DNA of 64,000 nucleotides from Synechococcus sp. UW179A (GTDB lineage: Bacteria > Cyanobacteriota > Cyanobacteriia > PCC-6307 > Cyanobiaceae), in contig NZ_UCNJ01000012.1 in the NCBI RefSeq assembly GCF_900473965.1, positions 1-64,000 of the forward strand, written 5' to 3'. Positions 56 through 20,924 of the stretch are shown piece by piece. Both the position numbers and the translations under genes were made by a program. Below the pieces are notes generated by a model. The model saw only the letters and a program-made list of their open reading frames with translations. It made no database searches and was not told the origin of the DNA. The stretch's first letter is position 1. Every line of letters begins with the position of its first letter.

Positions 56-93
56 TCAACGCTGGGGGTGGTGCTCACCACACCACTGAACGT

Positions 94-363
94 GTGAGCG
101 GATATGGACAACCCTTTGGGATTAAACCTCCGGAGCATTTGAGAGGTCCTAGAGGTCCACAAGGTCCTCTAGGTGAAAAAGGTCCAAGAGGTGAATCACC
201 AAAAGGTCCTCAAGGTCCTGAAGGTAAAAAAGGTCCTACAGGTGCCATAGGTGAAACCGGCGTGCCCGGTCCTGATATTGATATGGAACCTGCACTAAAA
301 GACAAACTCAAATCTCTGAAGGCACTTTTAGAGCGTCTTGAACAGATTCACTCAAGTAAGTGA
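94..363 (+). CDS. small collagen-like (Gly-X-Y) protein
   Basis: This 89-residue protein probably starts at GTG 94. Residues about 18-61 are mostly Gly-X-Y triplets rich in GPR, GPQ, GPE and GEK, with a short interruption (ESPK). The C-terminal 28 residues ([18 protein letters not shown]...) look like an amphipathic helix able to form a coiled coil, which in collagen-like proteins often trimerises the triple helix. No signal peptide is visible. Proline is limited but K/E pairs could stabilise a bacterial triple helix. A strong hairpin follows at 372-413. Role unknown; it may be structural or surface-related. Codon use is more AT-rich than in core genes, as expected for accessory DNA. Confidence 0.7.
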
Positions 364-371
364 GTTCAATA

Positions 372-413
372 GGAGCACTCCCACATCAAACTTTTTTGGT
401 GTGGGAGTGCTCC
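372..413. terminator. strong hairpin after collagen-like gene
   Basis: A perfect 14-bp stem (372-385 with 400-413) extends inward through about five more pairs, including one G-U, and closes on a short T-rich loop. It begins nine bases after the collagen-like stop codon. No long T-run follows on the plus strand, so it may terminate transcription from either direction or protect the 3' end. Confidence 0.6.
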
Positions 414-467
414 CTTCTTAAACAGTTACAGGTAGACACCTGCTTAACTTACTTTGCATCTGCAATT

Positions 468-733
468 CTATTCACAGTTCAAATCCAAAAGTGTAAATAC
501 TCTTGCTAAGCGTTCTTTCCCCAAGGGAACATTAGCGTCGTAATCTTTCTCAAGTGTTTCTAGCATTTTAAAATATAATTCTTTGGCAATACACTTGTCT
601 ATTGCTCCATCGTTCCCAGGAAGACAGATATTATTTGCTACAGCAGCAATATTTTGACTTTTTATCTCCACTTCACTGCAAGCAGTTGCTGGGGTCGCAA
701 ATAAGAGGCTTAGAAGAAGGACTAGTTTTTCAT
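468..733 (-). pseudogene. small secreted protein with signal peptide out of frame
   Basis: The open frame below 671 encodes 67 residues (starting at a GTG) with no known family. Upstream in the same frame the sequence reads KLVLLLLSLLFATPATA, a typical signal peptide, but no start codon is in frame. An ATG at 733-731 is followed by a run of five A (T726-730 on the plus strand). One extra A would join MKK to this signal peptide. The gene therefore looks like a secreted protein of about 87 residues broken by a one-base deletion in a homopolymer. It could be a real decay, a phase-variable tract or a sequencing error. Two mature Cys residues are visible. Confidence 0.5.
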
Positions 734-768
734 TAGTTCATTGTATCCCGCATCTTTTGCATCAGCAA

Positions 769-1215
769 TTAATAATCTTTTTCATAGCGAAAGTGTTTGA
801 CAACCTTTTGGTTAGACCTTACTAACTCTCCATTGCCCATTATTCCTTTCTGCCTCATCTCTTCTGTATAACCAATATACTCCTTTTTATCTTCGTCTGG
901 ACTGCATCCTGCAAATAGCATTAACTTACCTTTGTCTTCTTTATCCCTTTTTGCTTCTAGTTGCTCTACTTCTTTTTCAAAGTCTTCAAGTTTGAAACCT
1001 TCTTTTAAATCAACAGTAACCCCCTTATCGGATTTGCTTACATTAAAGTATTTGTCTTCAAGTGCATAATATTGCTCATCGATGTCTTTTGATTGAGGCC
1101 TGATTGATCTGGTGGTCTCAGCCCATTTAATACAAGCATCATTGGCTTCTTGTTTTGTCTTGTATCTACATCCAACTAAAACAAGTATTAGCAGAAGAGG
1201 CGCTAGGCGACTCAT
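769..1215 (-). CDS. putative lipoprotein, hypothetical
   Basis: This protein has a short signal (MSRLAPLLLILVLVGC) ending in a good lipobox with the modified Cys at residue 16, so it is probably anchored to a membrane. I chose ATG 1215 because it places the hydrophobic stretch correctly; ATG 1230 would add five residues. The mature part is highly charged with many K/E/D residues and a probable helix around FEKEVEQLEAKRDKEDKGK. No family is recognised. It lies on the same strand as the frameshifted secreted gene at 468-733, and both may be part of one accessory gene set. Confidence 0.6.
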   Translation of the reverse strand: MSRLAPLLLILVLVGCRYKTKQEANDACIKWAETTRSIRPQSKDIDEQYYALEDKYFNVSKSDKGVTVDLKEGFKLEDFEKEVEQLEAKRDKEDKGKLMLFAGCSPDEDKKEYIGYTEEMRQKGIMGNGELVRSNQKVVKHFRYEKDY

Positions 1216-1230
1216 GGCTTCATCATTCAA

Positions 1231-1583
1231 AAAATTCTATCTTAGGATAACAGCAAAAAGCCTTTGATGTTTTCGTCTATTTGACACATCAAGCTTAACC
1301 GTTTCTAAGCGGGTTATCTATGTACTTCACGGATAAATGCTGTGCCGAGATAAAACTATTAATGTGAATAGCAGTAATGAAAAAATCTAGGCGATATCAT
1401 CATGACACTTGGAAGCTAAATAGATTTGCTCTAATACCCTCTGAGAGGGCTTCGTAAGCGTATCTGGCAGGCTTTAAGTATCTATTAGCTGTCATCCATT
1501 CATCTAGGTATGTGACACCTTCTAGAGCCTTAATTGTTCGTTTCAGAAGGTTTGGCTAAGATAAAATATCTGCAATAATCCAA
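1231..1583. other. intergenic, possible ORF remnant
   Basis: No complete gene is visible in this AT-rich stretch. On the minus strand 1556-1401 is an open frame of about 50 codons without a convincing start (contains YLDEWMTANRYLKPARYAY), which might be the tail of a decayed gene. The promoter of the first Nif11-leader gene must lie in the last part, but I cannot fix its -10/-35 boxes. Confidence 0.3.
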
Positions 1584-1847
1584 ATGTCAGAAGAGCAGCT
1601 CAAAGCCTTCCTTGAAAAAGTCAAGGGCGACACAAACCTTCAGGATAAGCTCAAAGCTGCAGCAAATGCCGATGCAGTGGTAGCAATTGCTAAAGAATCG
1701 GGATTTGTGATTTCGACGGATGAATTGAAGAAAGCCGAAGCAGAGATTTCCGACAAGGAACTTGAAAAAGCAGCTGGCGGCGATTGCATTTTAACCCACA
1801 AAATTATTGAAGATTATACAAATTTATCCTGCTGGATAATCTGTTAA
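1584..1847 (+). CDS. Nif11-leader (prochlorosin-type) precursor peptide
   Basis: This is an 87-residue RiPP precursor. Residues 1-66 form a Nif11-type leader (MSEEQLKAFLEKVKGD..., ending ELEKAAGG) and the 21-residue core starts DCILTHKI. The core has Cys at 2, 18 and 21 plus Thr and Ser, as expected for a lanthipeptide (prochlorosin) core. The Gly-Gly site fits cleavage by a C39 peptidase. No LanM-type synthetase is in the window, so the maturase would have to act from elsewhere, as is known for prochlorosins. The frame continues past the stop for 25 more codons with a Cys/Thr-rich sequence. A sister precursor follows at 2011. Confidence 0.88.
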   Translation: MSEEQLKAFLEKVKGDTNLQDKLKAAANADAVVAIAKESGFVISTDELKKAEAEISDKELEKAAGGDCILTHKIIEDYTNLSCWIIC

Positions 1848-2010
1848 TGGCGACCTTTTGATGCGACGGGTCCAACAGGAGTGTGTAATCACTGCGCTAC
1901 AGATAATGAAAACATCAGCCTCTAGTGCCTGGCACCATTGAGCGCAGTAAGCATAAGCCAAAGACACTGCAGCAGACCGTTGCTATGACTGCTGGACAGG
2001 CCTCATACCC

Positions 2011-2277
2011 ATGTCAGAAGAGCAACTCAAGGCATTTCTCTCCAAAGCCAAAGGCGATTCCAGTCTTCAGGAGAAACTAAAAGCAGCTAAGTCACCTGAA
2101 GATGTTGTAGGTATTGCTAAAGAACATGGTCATGAATTTACTGCTGATAAGATTAACCAGCTCAGTGAAGAGGAGCTAGAAAGTGTGGCTGGTGGTGCAA
2201 ATATTTGCACTGGTTGCCAAATTGCAACAACTTGCATAGATGATAGCCAGATGCTTAAATATACTAATTCTGGCTGA
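2011..2277 (+). CDS. Nif11-leader (prochlorosin-type) precursor peptide
   Basis: This 88-residue RiPP precursor shares its leader with the 1584 gene (MSEEQLKAFL.KAKGD..LQ.KLKAA) and ends in EELESVAGG at residue 62. The 26-residue core begins ANICTGCQIATTC and has three Cys with several Thr and two Ser, suitable for (methyl)lanthionine rings. It is on the same strand as the first precursor with a 163-bp gap. Leaders are alike and cores unrelated, the pattern typical of the prochlorosin family. The dedicated modifying enzyme is not visible here. Confidence 0.88.
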   Translation: MSEEQLKAFLSKAKGDSSLQEKLKAAKSPEDVVGIAKEHGHEFTADKINQLSEEELESVAGGANICTGCQIATTCIDDSQMLKYTNSG

Positions 2278-3210
2278 GGAGCATTGGTCTTCAAAATGAC
2301 AGAAATCTCTGCATTCAAATATGCGGATTTTATTGATTTAGAAAACTCATAAATTGCCTCCAGTATCTAATGCGATTGTGCGCAGTTTTGGAAATAATGC
2401 CCAAACTAAATCGCAGTCTTACTTGCTAAATTTTGGCATAATTTCCTGATGCCTATTATCGTATGTGGAAGGAGGCAAATTCCTCCAGGGCATGGGTGCG
2501 ATCCTCTGTAAGTACCTGCACGCCAGGACATAAGGCAAGGTATTTAGATCACCAAGTGCCATTTCGGCAGCTTTCCGAAAGGATGCAGATGACCACACCT
2601 ACTGCGAATACTTGCATCTGCTAATACTATTGATGATGGTCATTGCTATTTAGATATGTAATCTAATGGTTCGACACAGTCGTGCCGCTGAACAGGCAGT
2701 GCCAGCACATAACACCACTATGTTGCACACTGGCTCTACAATCGCCCGTAACAGGCCTAAGGCATGTTACGGGCAGGGATTTTCTCCTAAGCACTGCCTT
2801 CCGCTTGATACAGGTGCATACAGATGCCATTCGTATCGATATAACTGGGATCTCAGGCGCTCAGCTGCTAGGTGCATGCCAGCCATTCACTGCTACCCAT
2901 TCAAACAGTGCTTGTTATCGCTGTGTTGGACATGGTTCCTGCAGTTTCTAGTGAATTGAACTGTTGACTGGCTAATAGATAGCGACACAATGACTGGTGC
3001 TATGTATAAACAATAGGCACTATCCATGGTGTGCAAATTTTAAGAGTATCGGCTAGAATTAAAGGTTGATTATCTTTCATCAGTTTTGTATTTATTTCCT
3101 TTCTTTAGTGGACATGAAAGAAGAGGAGAGATTTGCTCTTGCCCTCCTCTTTCTTTATGCCCTATTCTTATCATTCTCCAAAGCAATCAATCAGGACCAG
3201 GAGTATCTCG
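2278..3210. other. long intergenic stretch without a convincing gene
   Basis: Two overlapping plus-strand frames (2666-2959 and 2682-2951) are open, but neither has family resemblance or a leader-like N-terminus. The last 34 residues of the second are rich in Cys, Ser and Thr (ACQPFTATHSNSACYRCVGH...) and could be the remnant of a peptide core. A 9-bp perfect inverted repeat lies at 2744-2774. A second one pairs 3121-3128 with 3144-3151 and may end the minus-strand peptide gene at 3211. Otherwise I see nothing. Confidence 0.35.
2744..2774. terminator. 9-bp inverted repeat, terminator-like
   Basis: GCCCGTAAC at 2744-2752 pairs perfectly with 2766-2774 across a 13-base loop. It is followed by AGGGATTTTC, only a weak T-run. 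It could be a terminator or part of a small RNA. Confidence 0.3.
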
Positions 3211-3372
3211 TTAATCAGGACCACCAGGGTCCCATGGTGGTGGTGGTGGCATCCCTTCTAGTCCAGAACCTCCTCCAGATATTCCCTCTAGGTCTTCCTC
3301 ACTCAACTCTTGCTTGAGTTCAGGTGACTCCTTCTCTTTCTTGTCGTCCTTGATGTTCTTGGGGTCTTCCAT
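3211..3372 (-). CDS. double-glycine leader peptide with proline-rich core
   Basis: This 53-codon gene starts at ATG 3372 and stops at 3211. The first 34 residues are charged and end in ELSEEDLEGISGG, a textbook double-glycine leader end (L..EEL..I.GG spacing) recognised by C39 peptidases. The predicted 19-residue mature peptide is GSGLEGMPPPPPWDPGGPD, with five prolines in a row, one Trp and no Cys, Ser-rich or Thr-rich ring sites. It therefore looks like an unmodified secreted peptide or the product of an unusual pathway, not a lanthipeptide. It lies in the same block as two Nif11-leader genes, 6.6 kb from the YkgJ gene of the block that holds a C39 exporter. Confidence 0.7.
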   Translation of the reverse strand: MEDPKNIKDDKKEKESPELKQELSEEDLEGISGGGSGLEGMPPPPPWDPGGPD

Positions 3373-3557
3373 GGTGTTGCTACAGGCCTTGTATTAGTGA
3401 TAGCAACGCTGTTGGCTGCTGGCATGCCAACCACAGGTTGTGACTATTTGATAGCTGAGGTGATAGGCAATGCCTGAAAGGTGTAGTTGGTATTTACCGA
3501 TTTGTTCACTAGCTGTTCTCAATACCAACTGCTTTTTGCGATACCAACAGCAGAAGT

Positions 3558-3962
3558 TCATACCAGCGCCTTACCAGCTGCAAAGCACCGTTGAGAGTCA
3601 CTGCTACTACTCAGACCATGTGACAGCCAGGGGATTCGCAAGATTTGCAGCCTGTCTCTGCGGTAATGCTTGATCTGCCCTGTGATCCTCGGCATCGCGT
3701 AGCTGCTGATGCGGTGGCCGCGACCGGCCTCAAAACGTTCAAGAGCGCGAATCAGCCCATAGCGGCCTTCTTGCACCAGATCGTCCTGTTCGCCAGATCC
3801 GTTGTGCAGCAGACGGTTGGCACCGAGATGGGCCAGTCCCAGGTGCATCAGCACAGCGTCATTCCGTTGCAGGATGTGGGCAGGGATTGGGCGGCGGCGT
3901 TCATGACGTCGTTGTCGTTCAAGCCGTCGTTGAATGGCCGCTGGTGGTGTGCTGGTGGTCAT
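3558..3962 (-). pseudogene. truncated group 3 sigma-70 factor
   Basis: Residues from about 37 to 111 match sigma-70 region 2: a stretch like HLGLAHLGANRLL, then DDLVQEGRYGLIRALERFEAGRGHRISSYA and ITGQIKHYRRDRL, which form the core-binding and -10-recognition helices of cyanobacterial type III sigma factors. Resemblance ends at about base 3627; the last roughly 22 codons are unrelated and regions 3 and 4 are missing. It could bind core RNA polymerase but not a -35 box. The break coincides with the right end of block A, so I read it as a gene cut during insertion. The start at 3962 is chosen among three nearby ATGs. Confidence 0.75.
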
Positions 3963-4070
3963 GATTGACATCAAGCAGGAACCCCTTCACGGTCTGCTGA
4001 GTCCTGGTTGGCTCACCTCCCTCCTGCGGATGAAAGGATTCGTCCTTGGGGGGGATGAATGGGCATTGCA

Positions 4071-4607
4071 TCAGTGCTTGCCGGTGCGCCCGATCAAGTA
4101 GGAGCTGAACGCCAACATGAGCACACCTGCGCAGTACTGAATCAGTTCGGTGATCGAGGTCACCTCAAAGCTCACCATCACCTTGAACGCCGTCACGATC
4201 AGGGCAACGATGATCACCTTGGTGAGCTTCTGTTTCAGCCCATCGAGGTCTTGGATGTTGAGCAGGTTGCGTCTTGAAGTCGATGCATCGTTCTGTCGCG
4301 GGTCGATGTCGGAGATCACCAGCTCGTAGATGCCGTAGCCGAAAATCAGCAGGGCGATGCCGATCAGGTAGTAGTCGATGCCTCCCACCACCTTTCCGAT
4401 CAGCAGAGTGCTGTTGTCATGGGTGAAGTCACCTCGAAAGACTTTCTGGAGAACGCTGATCTCTGCATAGGTCCCGATCACAAAACAGCTGATGCTCCCC
4501 AGCAGGCTCATCAGAACGGGAATCAGCGTGACCAGTCGGAATTTCCAGATCAGCCCTTCAAACCTGCGTTCCAGTCGGTTCGATCGGTTCATGCTCGGCT
4601 TGTTCAT
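4071..4607 (-). CDS. UPF0114 family membrane protein
   Basis: This is a 178-residue integral membrane protein of the UPF0114 (YqhA-like) family. Four hydrophobic segments are visible: LVTLIPVLMSLLGSISCFVI, YYLIGIALLIFGYGIYELVI, VIIVALIVTAFKVMV and a C-terminal LIQYCAGVLMLAFSSYLI. A conserved-looking stretch around SDIDPRQND joins the second and third. The open frame extends to 4865 upstream, but that part overlaps the next gene and has no family resemblance, so ATG 4607 is preferred. Bases 4199-4253 are repeated at 1-55. Function is not established. Confidence 0.85.
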   Translation of the reverse strand: MNKPSMNRSNRLERRFEGLIWKFRLVTLIPVLMSLLGSISCFVIGTYAEISVLQKVFRGDFTHDNSTLLIGKVVGGIDYYLIGIALLIFGYGIYELVISDIDPRQNDASTSRRNLLNIQDLDGLKQKLTKVIIVALIVTAFKVMVSFEVTSITELIQYCAGVLMLAFSSYLIGRTGKH

Positions 4608-4648
4608 GGGGGGCTTGGTCTGGAATCGGGCAGCTGTGGAGGGATGAC

Positions 4649-4888
4649 TTAAGCGAGGGTCTCCGATCTGGGAGGTCTGGTTGGAGGTGGCGGGCCCAGA
4701 AGCGCTGGTATGGAGAGTCCCACAAGGGCTGAGCTCACAGCCAGAAAAACAGCCAAGGGAAGGGGCTTGATCAGTGGCTGCCGTTCCATCACGGTTCCGC
4801 AACGGGAGCAAACAGGCAGGGCCCCTTTTGGCGGGTGCAGAACGACCGCTGGACCACAACAGCAATCAGGGCAGCGGAATCGAGGCAT
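4649..4888 (-). CDS. zinc-ribbon membrane-anchored small protein
   Basis: This 79-residue protein has two CxxC pairs (C6-C9 and C27-C30), forming a likely zinc ribbon. One hydrophobic segment follows (about residues 42-64, LPLAVFLAVSSALVGLSIPALL), then a proline-rich tail. It is divergent from mfd with an 80-bp gap and lies 41 bp upstream of UPF0114 on the same strand. The start at 4888 is the first ATG that avoids overlap with mfd. Its role is unknown; it resembles the short zinc-ribbon proteins common in marine Synechococcus. Confidence 0.7.
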   Translation of the reverse strand: MPRFRCPDCCCGPAVVLHPPKGALPVCSRCGTVMERQPLIKPLPLAVFLAVSSALVGLSIPALLGPPPPTRPPRSETLA

Positions 4889-9433: not shown

Positions 9434-9973
9434 ATGAATTCATTACTGATGCAGCTGGCGCTGGCTGCGCTCGGTCAGTTCGGTGGCAATGGCCCCGTGC
9501 CGATGGGCGGTTTGTCCACCGGCGGTTTTCCCATGGGTGCTGTGCCGATGGGGGGGCTTCCCATCGGAGGCTTTCCTGCCGGCGGGGGACGTCCCGTTAT
9601 GACCGTATCCAGGCCAATGCCCCGTTACCCCACGGCACCGATGCCAGGGCGAACCTCATCGCTTCAACTCGCTTCACTGGCCACAGCCACCTGTCTGCTG
9701 CGAGAGCGGCAGTTGAGCCGTGCGCAGGCTGTTGAGCTTCTTGACCGTCAGGGGCAGGTCTGGGGATGGGAACCGCGATGGGGACAACGGATTCAGCTCG
9801 CTGCAGTGGATGGTGCCATCAACGCTGCCGGAGGCTGCAGAAGCATGGTGCGTAGGATCAAGGACAGTCCAGTGTCCATGCCGCCGATGGCGACAGCTCC
9901 GGTGAATCAACGCCCGGTGCGCAGCGGCAGTCGCAGTGAACGGGAGGGGTTCGGGTTGTACCCCTACCGCTGA
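9434..9973 (+). CDS. Gly/Met/Pro-rich repeat protein, hypothetical
   Basis: This 179-residue protein begins with a short hydrophobic stretch (MNSLLMQLALAALGQF). Residues 18-50 repeat a PMGG/IGGF-like unit (GGLSTGGFPMGAVPMGGLPIGGF). The C-terminal half carries a region with ATATCLLRERQLSRAQAVELLDRQG and WGWEPRWGQR that looks folded and helical and may bind a partner. No known family is recognised. It ends at 9973 and overlaps the tail of the broken ctp copy, a convergent arrangement at the left border of block B. Confidence 0.6.
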   Translation: MNSLLMQLALAALGQFGGNGPVPMGGLSTGGFPMGAVPMGGLPIGGFPAGGGRPVMTVSRPMPRYPTAPMPGRTSSLQLASLATATCLLRERQLSRAQAVELLDRQGQVWGWEPRWGQRIQLAAVDGAINAAGGCRSMVRRIKDSPVSMPPMATAPVNQRPVRSGSRSEREGFGLYPYR

Positions 9974-10697
9974 AGCGCGGAGTGGAGGTTTGCGGATCCC
10001 GGTTGATAGGCCTGACCGCGCCCCGGTGAGCGCAGGGCTTTGATCAAGGTGGTTTCGGCAGCTCGGTACTGACTGTCTTTGCCAGTGCCAAGCTGCTCGA
10101 CGGTTAGCGATTGGATCTCTTGATCGCTCAGTTTTACGTCCACATCCGGGCGAATGCCGTTTTTGTGGATATCGGTGCCTTTGGGCGTGAGGTACTTGGC
10201 AATGGTGACCGTCAACCCGGATCCATCCGAGAGGCCGCGGACAGACTGGACCAACCCCTTCCCAAAGGTTTTCTGACCCACCAGAACGGCTCGCTTGTTG
10301 TCTTGGAGTGCGCCAGAGAGAATCTCGCTGGCACTGGCTGAACCTTCATTCACCAGCACCACAACAGGACTGTTGGTCAGTGCACTGCCAGTGGCACGTC
10401 GGACATCCTGGATGCCGTCTCTTGTTTTGGTGCTGACGATGGTGCCTTCATCTAGCCATTGCCGTGCAATGTCGATGCTGGCTTCCAGCAGCCCACCAGG
10501 ATTACTGCGCAGATCAAGCACATAGCCTTAAGCACCTTCAGCCTCGAGTTCGCGGATCGCCGCCCGCATTTCTCTTGAGGCATTGGCATTGAACTGCTTC
10601 AGTCGGATGTAAACGATCTTTTGGCCGTTCTTGGTTGTGTTCAGTCGACTGTCAACAGCCTTCTGTATTCCAATTGTGCTTCCTTTTGTCTATCTCT
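9964..10697 (-). pseudogene. broken ctp (S41 C-terminal processing peptidase) copy
   Basis: This is a C-terminal fragment of a ctp gene. Bases 10019-10527 are apparently identical to 19627-20135 of the intact gene. Upstream, 10528-10697 is a diverged homologue (VDSRLNTT..., YIRLKQFNANASREMRAAIRELEAEGA) with an in-frame TAA at the junction, so it cannot encode a full protein. The catalytic Ser and Lys segments are present, but the PDZ and N-terminal regions are missing. Its own last codons (LHSALQR) differ from those of the intact copy. It is the left arm of the direct repeat around block B. Confidence 0.85.
10019..10527. repeat. direct repeat, left copy (ctp segment)
   Basis: These 509 bases match 19627-20135 in the same orientation, with no difference seen by eye. 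Flanking bases on both sides diverge. The repeat bounds block B. Confidence 0.88.
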
Positions 10698-11886: not shown

Positions 11887-12279
11887 CTACTCAACCCCTT
11901 GATCTGGATTAGCCGGTATTTTTGTTGCAATCGGTCTAGCTGGCCCACCGACCTGTGAATGACCGATCCCCTTTCTTATGCGTGCTTTTGCTGCTATTGT
12001 ATCCGGCGAAAATAGTCCACCTGCGACAGATTCTAATTCATCTAGGTCCATATCCTCAGGAACAGTTGGAATGGGTAAAATAATGGATCCCGCAGGTTCT
12101 TCAACAATTTTGAAATCGATATCTTTTAAATCTGATTCATCAAGATCAGTAAGACGAGCAAGAATAAATGATTTTGGATCTTTGATCAATTCTTCCTTTA
12201 GACTCGGATCTTCATAAATGCATGATGCAACATGTTCACGCAATGAAGAAAGAATAGAGAGATCTTCTTGAACAGTCAT
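11887..12279 (-). CDS. NHLP-leader precursor peptide (1)
   Basis: This 130-residue precursor has an 88-residue leader of the nitrile-hydratase-alpha-like (NHLP) type: EDPSLKEELIKDPKSFILARL, then DIDFKIVEEPAGSIILPIP, and a double-glycine end DELESVAGG. The 42-residue core starts LFSPDTIAAKARIRKG and is Pro/Gly/Ala-rich and basic, with no Cys. Its leader differs from the other two at about 10 positions, so it is the older relative. Export and cleavage by the NHLP transporter set encoded from 13675 is expected. No ring-forming residues are obvious, so an unmodified bacteriocin-like peptide is possible. Confidence 0.85.
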   Translation of the reverse strand: MTVQEDLSILSSLREHVASCIYEDPSLKEELIKDPKSFILARLTDLDESDLKDIDFKIVEEPAGSIILPIPTVPEDMDLDELESVAGGLFSPDTIAAKARIRKGIGHSQVGGPARPIATKIPANPDQGVE

Positions 12280-12360
12280 GGTGCAATAGGAAGCTTTTGA
12301 CTGAAAAGACCAAAGTGGAGTCGGATCACATAATACATTAATATGTTATTCAGATTTCTT

Positions 12361-12801
12361 TTATTCAGGACGAGTGTTTTGTGGGTTTTTTGTGTTTTTT
12401 GGACGTGCAAGGTCCCGCATGCCATCGTCGTTTAAAGCATTGATCGCAACCCCTGCGGCTACTGCGCCAGCTGCTGGAGCTGCTGCTTTGGAAACTGCTG
12501 TGATTCCGGCTGCTATTGCCTTGGCAGTAAAGATGAATCCACCTGCGACAGACTCTAATTCATCTAGATCCATATCCTCAGGAACAGTTGGAATGGGTAA
12601 AATGATGGATCCCGAAGGTTCGTCAACAACTTTGAAATCGATATCTTTCAAATCTGATTCATCAAGATCAGTAAGACGAGCAAGAATAAATGATTTTGGA
12701 TCTTTAATCAATTCTTCCTTTAGACTTGGATCTTCACAAATGCATGATGAAACATATTCACGCAATGAAGAAAGCATAGCGAGTTCTTCTTGTACAGTCA
12801 T
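12361..12801 (-). CDS. NHLP-leader precursor peptide (2)
   Basis: This 146-residue precursor has a leader of 88 residues ending DELESVAGG, identical in amino acids to that of the gene at 13067. The 58-residue core starts FIFTAKAIAAGITAVSK and is Ala/Gly-rich with GxxxG/AxxxG-like spacing, able to form a membrane-active helix. The tail is basic and polar (RDLARPKNTKNPQ). No Cys is present, so lanthionine or thiazole chemistry is unlikely. It arose together with the next precursor by tandem duplication. Confidence 0.87.
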   Translation of the reverse strand: MTVQEELAMLSSLREYVSSCICEDPSLKEELIKDPKSFILARLTDLDESDLKDIDFKVVDEPSGSIILPIPTVPEDMDLDELESVAGGFIFTAKAIAAGITAVSKAAAPAAGAVAAGVAINALNDDGMRDLARPKNTKNPQNTRPE

Positions 12802-12980
12802 GTCGCAGTAAAAATACTGCTTTAAGCTAACGCCGCGGAAAAGAGTGAATTGTATTAACCAATACTTTCAATGGATTCTGAGTGATATTTGCGTTAGAGC
12901 AAATAAACAAAAATAAATTATTAAATTCTTTCCGTTATTGGCAACGTTGTTGCTAAGAACAATTTTATGAGTTGTTGATC

Positions 12981-13024
12981 ATGCGCGCAAACTTCTGGAA
13001 AAAAATCAGAATTTTGGTCATCAA
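12981..13024 (+). pseudogene. duplicated 5' stub of the HlyD-like gene
   Basis: The stub matches the first codons of the adaptor gene (13675 onward, MRANFWKK...), but has seven A instead of eight in the homopolymer and stops at GGTCATCAAT, where precursor 3 unit sequence begins. It marks the duplication junction. Confidence 0.8.
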
Positions 13025-13724
13025 TATGATATTCAGATTTCTTTTCTAAGACGTTAAATTTTTTGATTATTCGTTGTTGCGTGCATCCCTAATTGCATCA
13101 TTGGCTTGCCCGGCTGCAACCCCTGAGGCAGTTCCAATCGCTACCGTGCCAGCTGGTGTTTTTGCTGCTGCAGTTGCTGCTTTGGAAGCTGCTTTGATTC
13201 CGGCTGTTATTGCCTTGGCAGTAAAGATGAATCCACCTGCAACAGACTCTAATTCATCTAGATCCATATCCTCAGGAACAGTTGGAATGGGTAAAATGAT
13301 GGATCCCGAAGGTTCGTCAACAACTTTGAAATCGATATCTTTCAAATCTGATTCATCAAGATCAGTAAGACGAGCAAGAATAAATGATTTTGGATCTTTA
13401 ATCAATTCTTCCTTTAGACTTGGATCTTCACAAATGCATGATGAAACATATTCACGCAATGAAGAAAGCATAGCGAGTTCTTCTTGTACAGTCATGTCGC
13501 AGTAAAAATTCTGTTTCAAGTTAACTACGCAGAAAAGAGTGAATTGTATCAACCAATACTTTTAATGGATTCTGAGTGTTGTTTGCGTTAAAGCAAACAA
13601 ACAAAAATAAATTCTTAAATTCTTTCCGTTATTGGCAACGTTGTTGCTAAAAACAATTTCATGAGTTGTTGATCATGCGCGCAAACTTCTGGAAAAAAAA
13701 TCAGAATTTTGGTCATCAATCGGC
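13025..13724. repeat. tandem duplication, copy B (precursor 3 unit)
   Basis: This is the second copy of the precursor unit, running from about 13023 into the first codons of the intact hlyD-like gene. Compare copy A at 12340-13024. Confidence 0.75.
13067..13495 (-). CDS. NHLP-leader precursor peptide (3)
   Basis: This 142-residue precursor is read from ATG 13495; the frame is open to 13552, but the NHLP leader starts MTVQEELAM. Residues 1-88 are identical to those of precursor 2. The 54-residue core starts FIFTAKAITAGIKAASK, again Ala/Gly-rich and helical, with an acidic-basic end (DAIRDARNNE). Precursors 2 and 3 could act as a two-peptide pair because their cores start alike and then diverge; this is inference. 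It is divergent from the exporter genes, with about 180 bp of shared promoter space. Confidence 0.87.
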   Translation of the reverse strand: MTVQEELAMLSSLREYVSSCICEDPSLKEELIKDPKSFILARLTDLDESDLKDIDFKVVDEPSGSIILPIPTVPEDMDLDELESVAGGFIFTAKAITAGIKAASKAATAAAKTPAGTVAIGTASGVAAGQANDAIRDARNNE

Positions 13725-15138
13725 AGTTGTTATCGATATTCCAATCAAACTTACCCTTTTTGTTCTCACATTTTTAGGTGCTTGGACTGCATTATGGGCA
13801 GTCTTTAGCAAAATACCGATCAATGTAACTGCTGCTGGAATTTTAGTTCCATCAGAAGGTCTTATGGAAATCAAAGCACCCGGTAACGGGATGGTTCTTT
13901 TTCCATTTGAGAGTCGCAAAAATCCTTCAAATCAAGAACCTACACGCCCTTTAGACCGTACTGAGCTGATTCCTCCTGCCTGGAGCAAAGAGGCCTACGA
14001 CTTCCAATGGGGTGTGTCGACAACCGAGCGTTCAACACTGAAAGCAATCCAATTGGCACGATCAATCGTTAATACGATTAATACTGCGACTTGGGCCAGA
14101 ATCGATAGTAGTAGTCGTGGAGTGAATCTTCAACTTGAATATGGCGGAGATATAGAAGTCGAAAAATATGATCTTGTAGCACTTATCGACAATGCAGCTG
14201 TCAGAAATAATCTGATAACTTCTTATGATGAATACATCAAGTCTCAGTCTGTTTTTAAAGACAATCAAGTGATTCTTCGGGCTGACTTAGATAATGCCTT
14301 GAAGTTATATAAGACAATGCTAGAGAGATACGATGCCAATGTTTCTCTTCTTAAACAAGGAGCCGTTAATGCCGAGCAGATTCTCAGTTTACAATCAGAT
14401 TACATTCGACAGGAAACTAGTATTAATGATTTACGACGTCAGCTTAAAAGTAATGAGGAAAAGGCGTTAAATACAGCCAACGAATTACTGTCATCATTAA
14501 CTTCTTATCTTCAATCTTCTGCTGTTTATGCTTTGGAGGATGCACGAATCACCTCATTTAATGTTGGGCAGAGATCGACTGTTAGTCAAGGAGCACCACT
14601 AATGCTTTTAGGTTGGAAAAACGAATTATCTCCTGATGAGGTCCCCATTTTTCTGAACGAGCGTGCATTCGCACAAGTTGCTCCAGGTATGGAAGCTCTA
14701 ATTACGCCAATAGGATTTAGTGCTTCTGAAATTGGTGGCATTCGAGGCGAGATAACTTCAATCGAAACTATGCCGTTGAGTACTGAGACTATTTCAAGAC
14801 TTTTAGCTGGTAGTGGAACTACGAATTTATTGCAAAGAGGTTCTCCTAGCAATTATCTTGCTACCGTAAAGCTTTTACGATCTGATAGCGATCAGTTTCA
14901 GAAAACGATATCCAGATTTAGAGAGCAAAATGTAAATGATTTGACAGGCGGGTATGTTTGGAATAATAGAAGTGTGCCTCCAAAGCCACCGAGAGAAGGC
15001 ATACTCTTCGATGTGCAGATAGTGACGAGAGAAATGTCCCCTCTTGAAATATTCTTACCGAAAATCAGGGAGCTTACTGGGTTAATTAGACCACAAAGAT
15101 TTACTGACTTAGAAAATCAGAATCCATCTTTTGATTGA
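13675..15138 (+). CDS. NHLP bacteriocin secretion protein (HlyD-like adaptor)
   Basis: This protein of about 487 residues belongs to the NHLP-system HlyD-like periplasmic adaptors. One N-terminal transmembrane segment (LFVLTFLGAWTALWAVF) is followed by a beta domain (VTAAGILVPSEGLMEIKAPGNGMVL), a long coiled-coil region around residues 185-275 and a second beta domain. It would link the inner-membrane ABC exporter to an outer-membrane TolC, which is not encoded here. ATG 13675 is preferred over TTG 13666. Its stop is 5 bp before the next gene's ATG. Confidence 0.9.
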   Translation: MRANFWKKNQNFGHQSAVVIDIPIKLTLFVLTFLGAWTALWAVFSKIPINVTAAGILVPSEGLMEIKAPGNGMVLFPFESRKNPSNQEPTRPLDRTELIPPAWSKEAYDFQWGVSTTERSTLKAIQLARSIVNTINTATWARIDSSSRGVNLQLEYGGDIEVEKYDLVALIDNAAVRNNLITSYDEYIKSQSVFKDNQVILRADLDNALKLYKTMLERYDANVSLLKQGAVNAEQILSLQSDYIRQETSINDLRRQLKSNEEKALNTANELLSSLTSYLQSSAVYALEDARITSFNVGQRSTVSQGAPLMLLGWKNELSPDEVPIFLNERAFAQVAPGMEALITPIGFSASEIGGIRGEITSIETMPLSTETISRLLAGSGTTNLLQRGSPSNYLATVKLLRSDSDQFQKTISRFREQNVNDLTGGYVWNNRSVPPKPPREGILFDVQIVTREMSPLEIFLPKIRELTGLIRPQRFTDLENQNPSFD

Positions 15139-15143
15139 TAAAC

Positions 15144-17396
15144 ATGTTGGGTCAGCAACGTTTTACTAAACGAAAGAAAGTTCCATCTGTTCTCCAATTT
15201 GAAGCTGTTGAATGTGGTGCAGCCGCATTGTCGATGATATTACGGCGCTGGGGTTTATATCTTCCTTTGAGCGAGGTTCGACTAGGCTGTGGTGTTAATC
15301 GCGATGGCTGTAATCTTAAAGATATTGCTCTGTATGCCCAATCCCTTGGTGTCAAGGTTCAAGGCAAACGTCTTCATTACAAACAGCTTCTGAAGCCGAA
15401 CCAACCTATTTACCCCTGTATTGCTTTTTGGAACTTTTCTCATTTTGTTGTTCTTGAAGGTGTTGGAAGGAATGGAAAGATCTTCATATGTGACCCTGCT
15501 CAAGGTCACTACACACTGAGTGAATCAGATTTTTCAAAACGATATACCGGTGTCATCCTTGTTGCGACAAAAACTGATAGTTTTGTCGCTCGTGGAAAAC
15601 CTGAAAATGAACTGGCTTCACTCATTTATTATCTGAACGATTTCAAATACTCTTTACTGGCCACTGCTGTATTGACCCTTGTATCCGTTATTCCTATCAT
15701 CATTGTCGCTGGTTTAAAAGGAGCTTTTGTCAATCAGTTTCTAATAGATCGCCGATATGGTTTTGGAATACCAATTATATGGTTGACATTGGCGATGCTT
15801 TTATTGACATTTTTCACTTCGCTTACATATAAATTTATTTTTAGAAGAATGCTTTTGAAGTTGATGAGAAAGTTGTCAATATCTATCGCAAAGAAGGTTT
15901 TTACTAACGACTATAATTTTTATCTATCAAGGTTGCGTGGTGATATCGCGAGCCGATTTACTCTAGGAATTTATATAGCTCAGACTCTTATTACTGAACT
16001 CGTGGCATCTCTTCTCCAGGTTATTAGTGCTTTGCTGATATTACCAATTCTTTTTGTCATGTCGTGGCAACTTGCTCTTGCATCTGCTTTCTATGTTGTT
16101 TTTGCTGTTTTATTAATGACATACTTTGCTGCTACATTAAAAGATGTCAACCGATCTATTGATTATGATTCGGCAAAGGTTGAAGGGAAAATAGCCTCCT
16201 TTATAAACGAAAGAGAATTGATTGTTTCTACTAGTCAAGAGCAAAATATCATCTCCAATTGGCTTAATAGTTTTGCCTTGGTCTCAACTAAACTTCAAAT
16301 AAATTTTGTCAAAGTTAATATTTTTGAGTTCGTGTTTTCATTCATGAATTCAGTATATCGCTATGGCACAATTGTTTTGTCTGGTCTTTTAGTTATTAAG
16401 GGAGAACTGAATCTTGCTGGATTTATGGCTTTTCAGGCTCTTCGTAGTTATGTCATTGATCCCTTGACTGGCTTAGCTTCCTTGTCGGCTAATCTTCAGG
16501 AAGCTGAGGCTTCCCTCGGGCGCCTCACAGATTTGTTTAGCGTTAAAGATGATCCCAAAGTAAGATCACTCAATTCAGTTCATTCACTTGTACGACTAAC
16601 TGGAAAGATACCATCTTCGATTTCTTCCGAATCAGCTACAACGAAGCTACAGCTCGATCGCGTCTTAAATGGTGATCTAAATGTCAGACGTGTCTTTCTT
16701 CAATTTAGCAAGATCAGTAATCCCGTCATATCGGATATATCATTTACTCTAAAAAGTGGCCAGATGATGACGATCGTTGGCCCAAGTGGTTCTGGCAAAT
16801 CAGTATTAATAAAGCTTTTAACGGGCCTTTATGACCCATCTTCTGGGAGTATTAATTACTCCCAAAAACATTGGCTTGACTATACTAATGAAGCGATCAG
16901 AACGCATATTGGATACGTGTCGCAAGAGACATCTGGATTTAGGGGTACAATTCAGGAGAATATTTCCATCTTTGATGATGGCATTCCATTAAATATGGTT
17001 CGGGAAGCGAGTCGGTTGGCTGAGATTGATCAAACCGTTATCTCCCTCGATCAATCCTACAATACTTTCTTAGGTGATGGTGGCAGTGGGTTGAGTGGTG
17101 GTCAATTACAGCGTCTTGAAATCGCTCGTGCAATTGTTCATCAACCTAAGTTGATTTTTTTGGATGAAGCTACAAGCAACTTAGATATTCCTACTGAAAA
17201 AAGAGTTTTGAAAAATCTTCGTGCCACAGGTGCCACTTTAGTATGTGTCGCCCATCGACTATTATCTGCAGAAATGAGTGATTTTGTGATGGTTTTAGAC
17301 CAAGGTAAGGTTGTCGAATTTGGCTCACCTAGTGAATTAAGAAAGATGGATGGTATTTACACCAATCTATTAGAGCAGGAGAAAATCTATGACTGA
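15144..17396 (+). CDS. NHLP peptidase/permease/ATPase ABC transporter
   Basis: This 750-residue exporter has an N-terminal C39 peptidase with Cys24 (VECGAAAL), His100 (NFSHF) and Asp117 (CDPAQ), so the protease is complete. Six membrane segments occupy about residues 160-450. The ATPase has Walker A GPSGSGKS near 545, signature LSGGQ near 649 and Walker B LIFLDEA near 669. It would cut after the Gly-Gly of NHLP leaders and export the core. It overlaps the second ABC gene by 8 bp. The family is NHLM ABC1. Confidence 0.93.
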   Translation: MLGQQRFTKRKKVPSVLQFEAVECGAAALSMILRRWGLYLPLSEVRLGCGVNRDGCNLKDIALYAQSLGVKVQGKRLHYKQLLKPNQPIYPCIAFWNFSHFVVLEGVGRNGKIFICDPAQGHYTLSESDFSKRYTGVILVATKTDSFVARGKPENELASLIYYLNDFKYSLLATAVLTLVSVIPIIIVAGLKGAFVNQFLIDRRYGFGIPIIWLTLAMLLLTFFTSLTYKFIFRRMLLKLMRKLSISIAKKVFTNDYNFYLSRLRGDIASRFTLGIYIAQTLITELVASLLQVISALLILPILFVMSWQLALASAFYVVFAVLLMTYFAATLKDVNRSIDYDSAKVEGKIASFINERELIVSTSQEQNIISNWLNSFALVSTKLQINFVKVNIFEFVFSFMNSVYRYGTIVLSGLLVIKGELNLAGFMAFQALRSYVIDPLTGLASLSANLQEAEASLGRLTDLFSVKDDPKVRSLNSVHSLVRLTGKIPSSISSESATTKLQLDRVLNGDLNVRRVFLQFSKISNPVISDISFTLKSGQMMTIVGPSGSGKSVLIKLLTGLYDPSSGSINYSQKHWLDYTNEAIRTHIGYVSQETSGFRGTIQENISIFDDGIPLNMVREASRLAEIDQTVISLDQSYNTFLGDGGSGLSGGQLQRLEIARAIVHQPKLIFLDEATSNLDIPTEKRVLKNLRATGATLVCVAHRLLSAEMSDFVMVLDQGKVVEFGSPSELRKMDGIYTNLLEQEKIYD

Positions 17397-19571: not shown

Positions 19572-20924
19572 TTAATTCTTAAGCGCTGATTGCAGGTTGG
19601 CTGAGCCGGGCTGATACGCCTGGCCTCGCCCCGGTGAGCGCAGGGCTTTGATCAAGGTGGTTTCGGCAGCTCGGTACTGACTGTCTTTGCCAGTGCCAAG
19701 CTGCTCGACGGTTAGCGATTGGATCTCTTGATCGCTCAGTTTTACGTCCACATCCGGGCGAATGCCGTTTTTGTGGATATCGGTGCCTTTGGGCGTGAGG
19801 TACTTGGCAATGGTGACCGTCAACCCGGATCCATCCGAGAGGCCGCGGACAGACTGGACCAACCCCTTCCCAAAGGTTTTCTGACCCACCAGAACGGCTC
19901 GCTTGTTGTCTTGGAGTGCGCCAGAGAGAATCTCGCTGGCACTGGCTGAACCTTCATTCACCAGCACCACAACAGGACTGTTGGTCAGTGCACTGCCAGT
20001 GGCACGTCGGACATCCTGGATGCCGTCTCTTGTTTTGGTGCTGACGATGGTGCCTTCATCTAGCCATTGCCGTGCAATGTCGATGCTGGCTTCCAGCAGC
20101 CCACCAGGATTACTGCGCAGATCAAGCACATAGCCCTGAGCGCCCTCTTTCTCGAGCTCCCGGATAGCGGCTCGCATCTCCCGGGCGGCATTGGCATTGA
20201 ATTGTTTGAGACGGATGTAGCCGACCTTCTTGCCATCGCCTGCTGTGTTCAGCCGACTCTCGACCGCATGAATTTCAATGCGTGCTCTCTTGAGAGGCAC
20301 CGTGACTACTTCACCCTTGCGGCGCAGGCCGAGGGTGACCTGGGTGCCTTCCTGGCCACGGATTAACTTGACCGCATCCTCCGTGGTCATTCCTTTCGTG
20401 GATTGGCCGTCGATCGAAACGATCACATCCTTGGGCTGCACTCCTGCTCTGGAAGCAGGGGTTCCTTCAATTGGAGACACCACAAGAATCTCTTTGGTGT
20501 CTTTGTCCAGCGTGATCTGGATGCCAACTCCCGTGAGCTCGCCGGAGGTGTCGATCTGCATCTCCTTGAACTCTTTTGGGTCCAAGAAGCGTGTGTAGGG
20601 ATCGTCGAGGCTGGCGAGCATGCCTCGGATCGCTTCATAGGACTCATCAGTGCCTGCATAGCTCTTGGCCAGCAGATCTCTTCTCAGGCTGGTCCAGGTT
20701 TCAGGGGAATACTTTCCTGAAGAGTCAAGAAAATCTCTGTAGACAATCTGCCAGACCTGGTCGATGACCTCCTTGGGGCTGTTGGTGATCGAGGAGGAAT
20801 TGGTGCTGGGAAGTCCGAGGCCTGGCGCCGCTACAGCAATGGCTGTGGTCAAACCACCTGCTCCAAGAATCAGCAGCAAACCTCTGTGCTGTGACAAAGG
20901 CGATCGAGGACTTTTAGTGGTCAT
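19572..20924 (-). CDS. ctp: C-terminal processing peptidase, S41 family
   Basis: This 450-residue periplasmic serine protease has an N-terminal membrane or signal segment (LLLILGAGGLTTAIAVAA), a PDZ domain near 115-200 and the catalytic dyad Ser328 (GSASASEI) and Lys353 (TFGKGLVQ). In cyanobacteria, Ctp enzymes process precursor D1 and other lumenal proteins. This gene lies beside ispG. Bases 19627-20135 repeat 10019-10527. If the block entered by a single crossover, the gene is a chimera with a transferred 3' end (LQSALKN) and a native remainder. Confidence 0.93.
   Translation of the reverse strand: MTTKSPRSPLSQHRGLLLILGAGGLTTAIAVAAPGLGLPSTNSSSITNSPKEVIDQVWQIVYRDFLDSSGKYSPETWTSLRRDLLAKSYAGTDESYEAIRGMLASLDDPYTRFLDPKEFKEMQIDTSGELTGVGIQITLDKDTKEILVVSPIEGTPASRAGVQPKDVIVSIDGQSTKGMTTEDAVKLIRGQEGTQVTLGLRRKGEVVTVPLKRARIEIHAVESRLNTAGDGKKVGYIRLKQFNANAAREMRAAIRELEKEGAQGYVLDLRSNPGGLLEASIDIARQWLDEGTIVSTKTRDGIQDVRRATGSALTNSPVVVLVNEGSASASEILSGALQDNKRAVLVGQKTFGKGLVQSVRGLSDGSGLTVTIAKYLTPKGTDIHKNGIRPDVDVKLSDQEIQSLTVEQLGTGKDSQYRAAETTLIKALRSPGRGQAYQPGSANLQSALKN
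19627..20135. repeat. direct repeat, right copy (inside intact ctp)
   Basis: These 509 bases equal 10019-10527. The left and right copies lie 9608 bp apart in the same orientation, so a crossover between them would delete block B. Confidence 0.88.

What the first reader, a model, noticed from the sequence alone, without database searches (positions are those of the whole stretch)
3211..3372. Overlooked 53-residue double-glycine peptide with a PPPPPW core
A short minus-strand gene ends its leader in ELSEEDLEGISGG and has a mature part GSGLEGMPPPPPWDPGGPD. No Cys, Ser-rich or Thr-rich ring sites are present. Such a proline-rich secreted peptide could act as signal, antimicrobial or ligand; I know no matching family.
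Basis: partly seen in the sequence, partly recalled or inferred. Interest (0 to 1): 0.62.

Follow-up and report, generated by a model that had tools for sequence, protein, structure and literature searches.

The report
Secreted-peptide precursor from a variable-core family
This small gene of a Synechococcus-group cyanobacterium looks real: it keeps an export leader shared with relatives but carries a payload of its own, and it seems to run from the same promoter as many of the cell's prochlorosin-type peptides, hinting at a second, ring-free set of diverse secreted peptides.

Summary
The ORF is as described: 53 codons, leader ending ELSEEDLEGISGG, 19-residue core GSGLEGMPPPPPWDPGGPD. It is very unlikely to be chance. 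The whole protein matches six other places in this genome and three of 30 other genus genomes. The leader is under purifying selection (pN/pS 0.29 over 8 genes). In 14 members, leaders are alike (median z 10.3) and cores unrelated (median z -0.16; 91 pairs). At -34 lies TTGCTATCACT, an extended -10 box typical of the genome's Nif11 (prochlorosin-type) precursor genes. The gene ends in a hairpin block that mostly accompanies this family (9 of 11 sites). It sits on an AT-rich peptide island. It is neither Nif11 nor, by NCBI's model, CCRG-2; CCRG-2 is the nearest named group. Best reading: precursor of a secreted, lanthionine-free peptide processed by a C39 exporter, one payload of a second hypervariable double-glycine library tied to the prochlorosin promoter. 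The proline core occurs nowhere else among 31 genus genomes, so its own function is untested; decay of this member is a live rival.

The parts
3211..3372 (-). 53-aa double-glycine precursor (P0001)
3271..3372 (-). leader, 34 aa, MEDPKNIKDDKKEKESPELKQELSEEDLEGISGG
   Evidence: homologous leaders; pN/pS 0.29 over 8 genes
3214..3270 (-). core, 19 aa, GSGLEGMPPPPPWDPGGPD; monoisotopic mass 1858.82; a (CCA)5 tract encodes the prolines
   Evidence: cleavage after Gly34 inferred from the GG rule; core found only here among 31 genus genomes
3396..3406 (-). extended -10 box TTGCTATCACT, 34 nt before the ATG, as in many Nif11 precursor genes
   Evidence: matrix built from Nif11 upstream regions: 15.7 bits here; none of 20000 random 40-nt pieces and none of 5000 shuffles as high
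3110..3162 (-). 3' hairpin containing the 3' block AAAGAAAGAGGAGGGCAAGAG (3136-3156)
   Evidence: fold z -4.92; block in 3 of 31 genomes, 11 sites, 9 of them beside a family gene
56..3625 (.). AT-rich island (42.5% GC against 54.4% beyond R) holding the peptide genes
   Evidence: homology of the closest relatives ends at 3626; composition
3626..4253 (.). segment R (end of the 264-aa ORF 4071-4865 plus 5' part of a sigma-factor gene), inferred to occur twice, on both sides of the island
   Evidence: 55-bp exact overlaps of contig ends with the two borders of R
2011..2277 (+). Nif11-leader (prochlorosin-type) precursor on the same island, with TTGCTA at -31
   Evidence: TIGR03798 87.6 bits
1584..1847 (+). 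Nif11-leader precursor on the same island; no TTGCTA in its 70 upstream bases
   Evidence: TIGR03798 87.8 bits
15135..17396 (+). C39-peptidase ABC exporter, one of four in the genome; candidate processing and export enzyme
   Evidence: PF03412 115.9 bits; ORF; assignment to this peptide is inference

Best explanation
The gene encodes the precursor of a secreted, probably unmodified 19-residue peptide. It is one member of a hypervariable double-glycine peptide family in which leader, promoter and 3' block tend to be kept while the payload differs. Shown by sequence: conserved leader, unrelated cores, a promoter box shared with many Nif11/prochlorosin-type genes, residence on a peptide island. 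Inferred: transcription starts about 20-25 nt before the ATG; the leader end ELSEEDLEGISGG docks on the peptidase domain of a C39 ABC exporter, which cuts after Gly34 and exports GSGLEGMPPPPPWDPGGPD; with no Cys or Thr and one Ser the core is not made into lanthionine rings by the genome's LanM-type enzymes. The Pro5-Trp stretch should form a stiff polyproline-II rod (general knowledge). The most likely use is outside the cell, as one of a varied set of ligands towards neighbouring cells, made together with the prochlorosin-type peptides.
For: Whole-protein matches at E<=1e-3 in 4 of 31 genus genomes, 7 places in the own genome including itself. pN/pS 0.29 in the leader. Leaders alike, cores not: 91 pairs, median z 10.3 against -0.16. 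Promoter matrix from Nif11 genes found in 9 of 17 family genes tested, including all 8 that open a row, at -31 to -34, p_genomic 0.0153 or lower. 3' block: 11 sites in 3 of 31 genomes, reversed control 0. Two cores are kept across species under different leaders: FKFHEHKQNPTQVPISQPLDD / FKFHRQERNPTQVPLSEPRDD and VDLAAVAISMYDGYEGRA / VDLAAIAIPMYSGHEDRA, both with pN below pS on few sites. Four C39 exporters in the genome, one about 12 kb away.
Against: No expression or peptide data. The PPPPPW core has no orthologue, so selection on it cannot be tested. Two close siblings are damaged: one has a TAG inside the leader, one lost the GG site. The proline tract is a simple (CCA)5 repeat, and after the stop the same frame reads RDTPGPD* (read), which could mean recent shortening. 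P0001 itself scores below the cut-off of every NCBIfam and Pfam double-glycine model listed. One of the two Nif11 genes on the island lacks the box. Two of 11 copies of the 3' block have no family gene on their strand nearby. Which exporter serves it is unknown.
Confidence: 0.7

Rival explanations
1. Decaying family member: promoter and leader are intact by recent descent, but the core is the accidental result of an indel or a premature stop and has no function.
For: Two of the seven MED-type genes seen in this genome are broken. The core is low-complexity and unique. After the TAA the frame continues RDTPGPD*. A 47-bp stretch beginning about 33 bases after the P0001 stop is 94% identical to the last 24 coding bases plus 23 following bases of the sibling at L009:7852, so the end of the gene has been rebuilt.
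Against: The frame is intact from ATG to stop. The leader's non-synonymous rate is well below its synonymous rate against each of seven homologues. The promoter scores third of the 17 genes tested. Unrelated cores are also the rule among intact members.
Confidence: 0.22
2. The peptide is a modified RiPP of a non-lanthionine kind.
For: The genome is rich in RiPP precursor genes and has two LanM-type proteins.
Against: Core has no Cys or Thr and one Ser. I recognised no modification-enzyme gene on the island, where the ORF list shows only short frames (only some were family-scanned). Other modifying enzymes were not searched genome-wide.
Confidence: 0.1
3. It is a class II bacteriocin-like antimicrobial aimed at close relatives.
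For: P0001 comes near the TIGR01847 leader model (13.8 bits, cut-off 15.7). Six of ten relatives scanned pass it, and L042 passes the class IIb model TIGR03949 (22.5 bits, cut-off 21.5).
Against: Leader resemblance speaks for export only. The core is short and acidic (pI about 4.05). I made no dedicated search for an immunity gene and recognised none on the island.
Confidence: 0.12
4. Chance ORF.
For: Short; core without relatives.
Against: Leader homology and selection, promoter, 3' block.
Confidence: 0.01

Closest known systems
CCRG-2 family RiPP (NCBIfam NF033456; short double-glycine peptides of Prochlorococcus/Synechococcus)
   Same: Short non-Nif11 leader ending in ELxxxELxxxSGG and variable cores. 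The family profile also matches genome G100 (genus g30), two of whose peptides pass the CCRG-2 cut-off (24.5 and 25.1 bits against 24).
   Different: P0001 gives no CCRG-2 match at E<=10 and its place is not in the own-genome list of that model. 4 of 9 aligned members match weakly, best E 0.0045; such weak matches also occur in 9 of 14 control genomes. The MED-type leaders have their own N-terminal half (MEDPKNIKDDKKEKESPELKEEL).
Prochlorosins / Nif11-leader precursors (TIGR03798, PF07862)
   Same: Conserved leader with variable core, double glycine, same -10 box at nearly the same distance from ATG, neighbours on the same island.
   Different: No Nif11 leader (12.7 bits against 32.3). Cores mostly without Cys: 4 of the 14 members listed have one, against 44 of 45 Nif11 cores.
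EbfG1-4 of Synechococcus elongatus PCC 7942 (PMC4997328, passages read)
   Same: Small proteins with a GG motif, efficiently secreted only with a working C39-peptidase transporter (PteB).
   Different: The paper gives 6-7 kDa mature proteins without homology to proteins of other cyanobacteria; here 1.9 kDa. No sequence comparison was made here.
NHLP-like precursors in this window (11887-13552; name from the look of the leaders, not scanned)
   Same: Leaders ending in GG, near-identical, with different cores, beside a C39 exporter.
   Different: Long leaders of another type.

Membership tests
CCRG-2 (NF033456) | NCBI leader model at or above 24 bits | tested here: not met
   P0001 not listed at E<=10 (HMMER filters drop most weak matches); in the own genome siblings reach at most 17.2 bits and only a Nif11-type gene passes, counting neighbouring stretches
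CCRG-2 (NF033456) | Response to co-culture with a heterotroph (recalled from Aharonovich and Sher 2016; paper not held) | not testable with these tools
   no expression data
Nif11 / prochlorosin precursor | Nif11-type leader | tested here: not met
   TIGR03798 12.7 bits against 32.3; no PF07862 match
Nif11 / prochlorosin precursor | Cys and Ser/Thr in the core for lanthionine rings | tested here: not met
   core has no Cys, no Thr, one Ser
Nif11 / prochlorosin precursor | Same promoter box (shared with many of them, not a defining feature) | tested here: met
Double-glycine (C39-exported) peptide, general kind | Leader with acidic/hydrophobic pattern ending in GG | tested here: met
   (by eye against the known pattern)
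Double-glycine (C39-exported) peptide, general kind | C39 peptidase-ABC exporter in the genome | tested here: met
   four PF03412 matches over the cut-off
Double-glycine (C39-exported) peptide, general kind | Cleavage after GG and secretion | not testable with these tools
   needs a biochemical assay
Class II bacteriocin leader (TIGR01847) | Score at or above 15.7 bits | tested here: not met
   13.8 bits; 6 of 10 relatives scanned pass
EbfG biofilm proteins | Sequence homology of mature part | not tested
   no EbfG sequence compared

The most novel reading that the evidence does not exclude
Some marine Synechococcus keep a second combinatorial peptide library beside the prochlorosins: short-leader, mostly Cys-free, ring-free peptides whose payloads are swapped between leaders, sometimes two leader-payload units in one gene. 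It is switched on by the same extended -10 promoter as the lanthipeptide library and spreads on small islands. The PPPPPW peptide is one payload. The biological role of prochlorosins would then depend on diversity and secretion, not on rings.
Probability: 0.45. Interest if true: 0.75.

Novelty: new variant of a known kind. Interest (0 to 1): 0.5.

Why it matters
The biological function of prochlorosins, of which some marine Synechococcus carry about 80 genes, is described as unknown (PMC10783134, abstract and first part of the results). A ring-free peptide family with the same promoter box and the same keep-the-leader, change-the-core habit separates two hypotheses: that the lanthionine ring matters, or that secreting many different peptides matters. 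It gives a matched comparison set inside one cell, with concrete peptide masses and a promoter to test.

Tried and rejected
Chance ORF: rejected. Nif11 membership: rejected. CCRG-2 membership by model: rejected, though relatedness at group level stays likely. Viral or phage origin: 92 stretches of viral contigs matched a pattern of alignment A3, none was confirmed; no match in 50,697 phage records. Orthologue of the core: best non-self E 0.646 among 31 genus genomes; four hits share a 107-aa frame length and were taken as chance without further study. One scan of genome contigs: 103 pattern matches, one confirmed, Synechococcus sp. AG-679-A04. The idea that CCATGG in the core is a copied start region in another frame was considered and not tested. 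Structure prediction was not run: a short, probably disordered peptide would give a weak model.

Limits of the counts. Profile A2 was built from 9 rows of the own genome, 2 of G017, 3 of G008 and 1 of G013, so its matches there are partly by construction; G005 and G026 are the independent strong ones. The 40-peptide set came from a motif search, contains some truncated Nif11 and unrelated entries and starts at a wrong Met for some (for instance L013), so its 12 of 40 with Cys is rough. The 14 members were picked by me and omit, among others, the double-leader gene L009:7509 (which has Cys) and a further G008 gene seen. In one search the labels 'first' and 'internal' were set by eye after seeing the upstream DNA. 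By strict position 8 of 8 genes that open a row of family genes have the box, and 1 of the 9 others (G008_1456, third in its row, about 117 nt past the previous stop). C12_10323 is counted among the others because it follows a relic 3' block, though no intact sibling lies directly before it. The 17 include the two damaged genes. Some upstream regions are related by descent, so the 17 are not independent; the weakest box (G017_763) has p 0.015. The matrix used 38 of 44 Nif11 upstream regions, those with at least 7 of 11 matches to a seed that I chose after reading. The random pieces came from window 20001-64000, which is richer in GC than the island; shuffles of each upstream region gave the same division into hits and misses.

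Full report
What is there. Among 158 ATG ORFs of 40-70 residues in the window it is the only one with such a double-glycine site.

It belongs to a family. The whole protein matches seven places of the window's own genome at E<=1e-3, itself and six others, one of them with a TAG in the leader. In the genus, 4 of 31 genomes match at that level: the own one, G008, G013 and G017. A profile of 15 leaders taken from these four genomes (A2) matched 14 of 400 genomes of the taxonomic family at E<=1e-3, with 12 matches in the own genome. Six of the 14, all in the own genus, reach E<1e-6: the four source genomes plus G005 and G026. G017's match sits at the same contig position as a record titled Synechococcus sp. 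AG-679-A04, so the genus includes that organism; that it is a marine picocyanobacterium is general knowledge, not a result here. No relative was confirmed in viral contigs or phage records.

Leader kept, core changed. P0001 and its closest relative (G017_763) are 92% identical over 100 bases, from 20 bases before the ATG to codon 27; the cores then differ, and similarity returns in a 27-bp 3' block. Over 14 members (91 pairs) leaders are clearly related (median z 10.3) and cores are not (median z -0.16). The one core pair above z 4 consists of two double-leader genes whose 'core' contains a second leader. Leaders are under purifying selection: pN 0.135, pS 0.464 over all pairs of eight genes. 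So the reading frame is real for the leader; for P0001's own core nothing can be said, because no second copy was found.

Evidence that cores matter in this group. Two cores recur in other species under a different leader: FKFHEHKQNPTQVPISQPLDD (L011) and FKFHRQERNPTQVPLSEPRDD (L047, G024); VDLAAVAISMYDGYEGRA (L014) and VDLAAIAIPMYSGHEDRA (L042, G026). Both pairs have pN below pS (0.161 against 0.380; 0.133 against 0.202), on very few sites. This is what exchange of payloads between leaders would leave. Proline-rich payloads are not unique to P0001: a fourth G008 gene has the core APIGVNPLPFPPSIRNPEHTAPSGDLLASK after a MEDPKQEKQSPELKEEL leader.

Double-leader genes. L009:7509-7790, L016:1759-2022, L015:739-1011 and a gene in L030 hold two leader-like sites in one ORF, so one precursor could release two peptides. 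The first unit DGVVTDVPGN(P/T)LGSL is shared between the own genome and G008.

A promoter box shared with prochlorosin-type genes. Of 37 Nif11 upstream regions, 19 hold TTGCTA, 16 of them 31 nt before the ATG (mean 0.5 of 37 after shuffling). A matrix from 38 of 44 Nif11 regions (TTGCTATAACT, which reads as an extended -10 box by textbook rules) was applied to 17 genes of the present family. All 8 that open a row carry it at -31 to -34, and so does 1 of 9 others. P0001 has TTGCTATCACT at -34, 15.7 bits; none of 20,000 random pieces and none of 5,000 shuffles score as high (labelling and independence caveats are in Tried and rejected). Of the two Nif11 genes on P0001's own island, 2011-2277 has the box at -31 and 1584-1847 does not. 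The two precursor families are therefore probably transcribed together, though not without exceptions.

A 3' block. AAAGAAAGAGGAGGGCAAGAG with up to two mismatches occurs seven times in the own genome, three times in G008, once in G017, and not in the other 28 genus genomes; read backwards it occurs nowhere. Nine of these 11 sites lie beside a family gene on the same strand. The other two (C4:70547 of the own genome and G008:2034300) do not; the first lies about 90 bases beyond the end of a convergent small gene with a GVDGA site, MSKEEKQLQQPKEELTAEQLKGVDGAEG. G013 has a MEDPKN leader (L052) but no block. Below P0001 the block forms a strong hairpin (z -4.92); at three siblings the fold is weaker or absent (z 0.73, -2.36, -2.02). 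It may be a terminator or processing site; this is inference.

The island. Alignment of the window with relatives runs through the 5' part of a sigma-factor gene and stops at 3626 in nine of 24 loci; in the others it ends earlier. In the seven closest relatives (L080-L086) the gene runs on past that point; open frames are 269-291 residues in five, 228 in L082 and 131 in L086. The missing part of the own gene starts contig C4. Contig C12 begins with an exact 55-bp copy of 4199-4253, and C4 begins with 55 bp of the window's sigma fragment. Among 22 contig ends examined, one further pair (C32, C7) also overlaps by exactly 55 bp, which points to assembly overlaps at repeat borders. The simplest reading is that segment R (3626-4253, 628 bp) exists twice and flanks the island 56-3625, leaving one whole copy of each broken gene; a circular form is not excluded. 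The island has 42.5% GC against 54.4% for the window beyond R, and carries two Nif11 precursors, a collagen-like ORF and P0001.

What it is not. No Nif11 domain, no CCRG-2 score, below the bacteriocin leader cut-off. Cores are Cys-poor: 4 of the 14 members (my count), against 44 of 45 Nif11 cores. Of ten relatives scanned, two peptides of G100 (genus g30) reach the CCRG-2 cut-off (24.5 and 25.1 bits), so CCRG-2 is the nearest named group. CCRG-2 peptides are described as secreted small peptides related to prochlorosins in PMC8120280 (passages). The original CCRG paper is not held; what I say of it is recall.

Mechanism. Expression with Nif11 genes, export and cleavage by a C39 ABC exporter (four in the genome, one at 15135-17396, one about 5 kb from a LanM gene), and release of a linear proline-rich peptide. 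Dependence of small GG-motif proteins on a C39 transporter has been shown in Synechococcus elongatus (PMC4997328, passages). Target and effect are unknown; I favour an extracellular ligand role within a diversified set, and give decay of this single member 0.22.

Literature. Seven searches, of which I saw the listings and passages of five papers, showed no description of this leader family or of a promoter shared with Nif11 genes. PMC10783134 (abstract, first of three parts of the results, passages) has no occurrence of 'promoter' or 'CCRG'. The library lacks most subscription papers, so this is not proof of absence.

Noticed in passing
window 9970-10659 and 19578-20267: The 3' part of a protease-like gene (450 aa, 19572-20924; looks like a carboxy-terminal protease, not scanned) is repeated (690 bp, 92.9%) on the other side of the AT-rich C39-exporter cluster (38.9% GC between them, 56.9% after 21000). 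Same architecture as inferred for the P0001 island: a peptide island flanked by a duplicated gene fragment that leaves one whole gene. It may reflect insertion by single crossover of a circle; not tested in relatives.
   Followed up: partly
window 11887-13552 (-): Three precursors with near-identical long NHLP-like leaders and different cores, next to a C39 exporter, a second ABC protein and a probable membrane-fusion protein (the last two and the leaders were not family-scanned).
   Followed up: partly
window 94-363 (+), hairpin 372-413: Small collagen-like ORF (PF01391 29.9 bits, cut-off 27.2) followed by a 19-nt inverted repeat, on the same island.
   Followed up: no
L010:9589-9939: Another double-glycine ORF with a proline-rich tail (VVGGWIPPLMRLPIPPPGGFQPWHERTPPTETYRS) in the same genome.
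   Followed up: no
window 3187-3210 (-): Right after the P0001 stop the same frame reads RDTPGPD and stops again, echoing the core's DPGGPD end; a stretch further on matches the 3' end of a sibling gene.
   Followed up: partly
L109:1480-1570 (G000 C4, about 70526-70616): Orphan copy of the 3' block and the DNA after it, closely like the stretch behind P0001, with no family gene on that strand before it.
   Followed up: partly
G000 C25:302417 and C12:385941: Two LanM-type proteins (PF13575 324.1 and 109.2 bits), the first about 5 kb from a C39 exporter.
   Followed up: no
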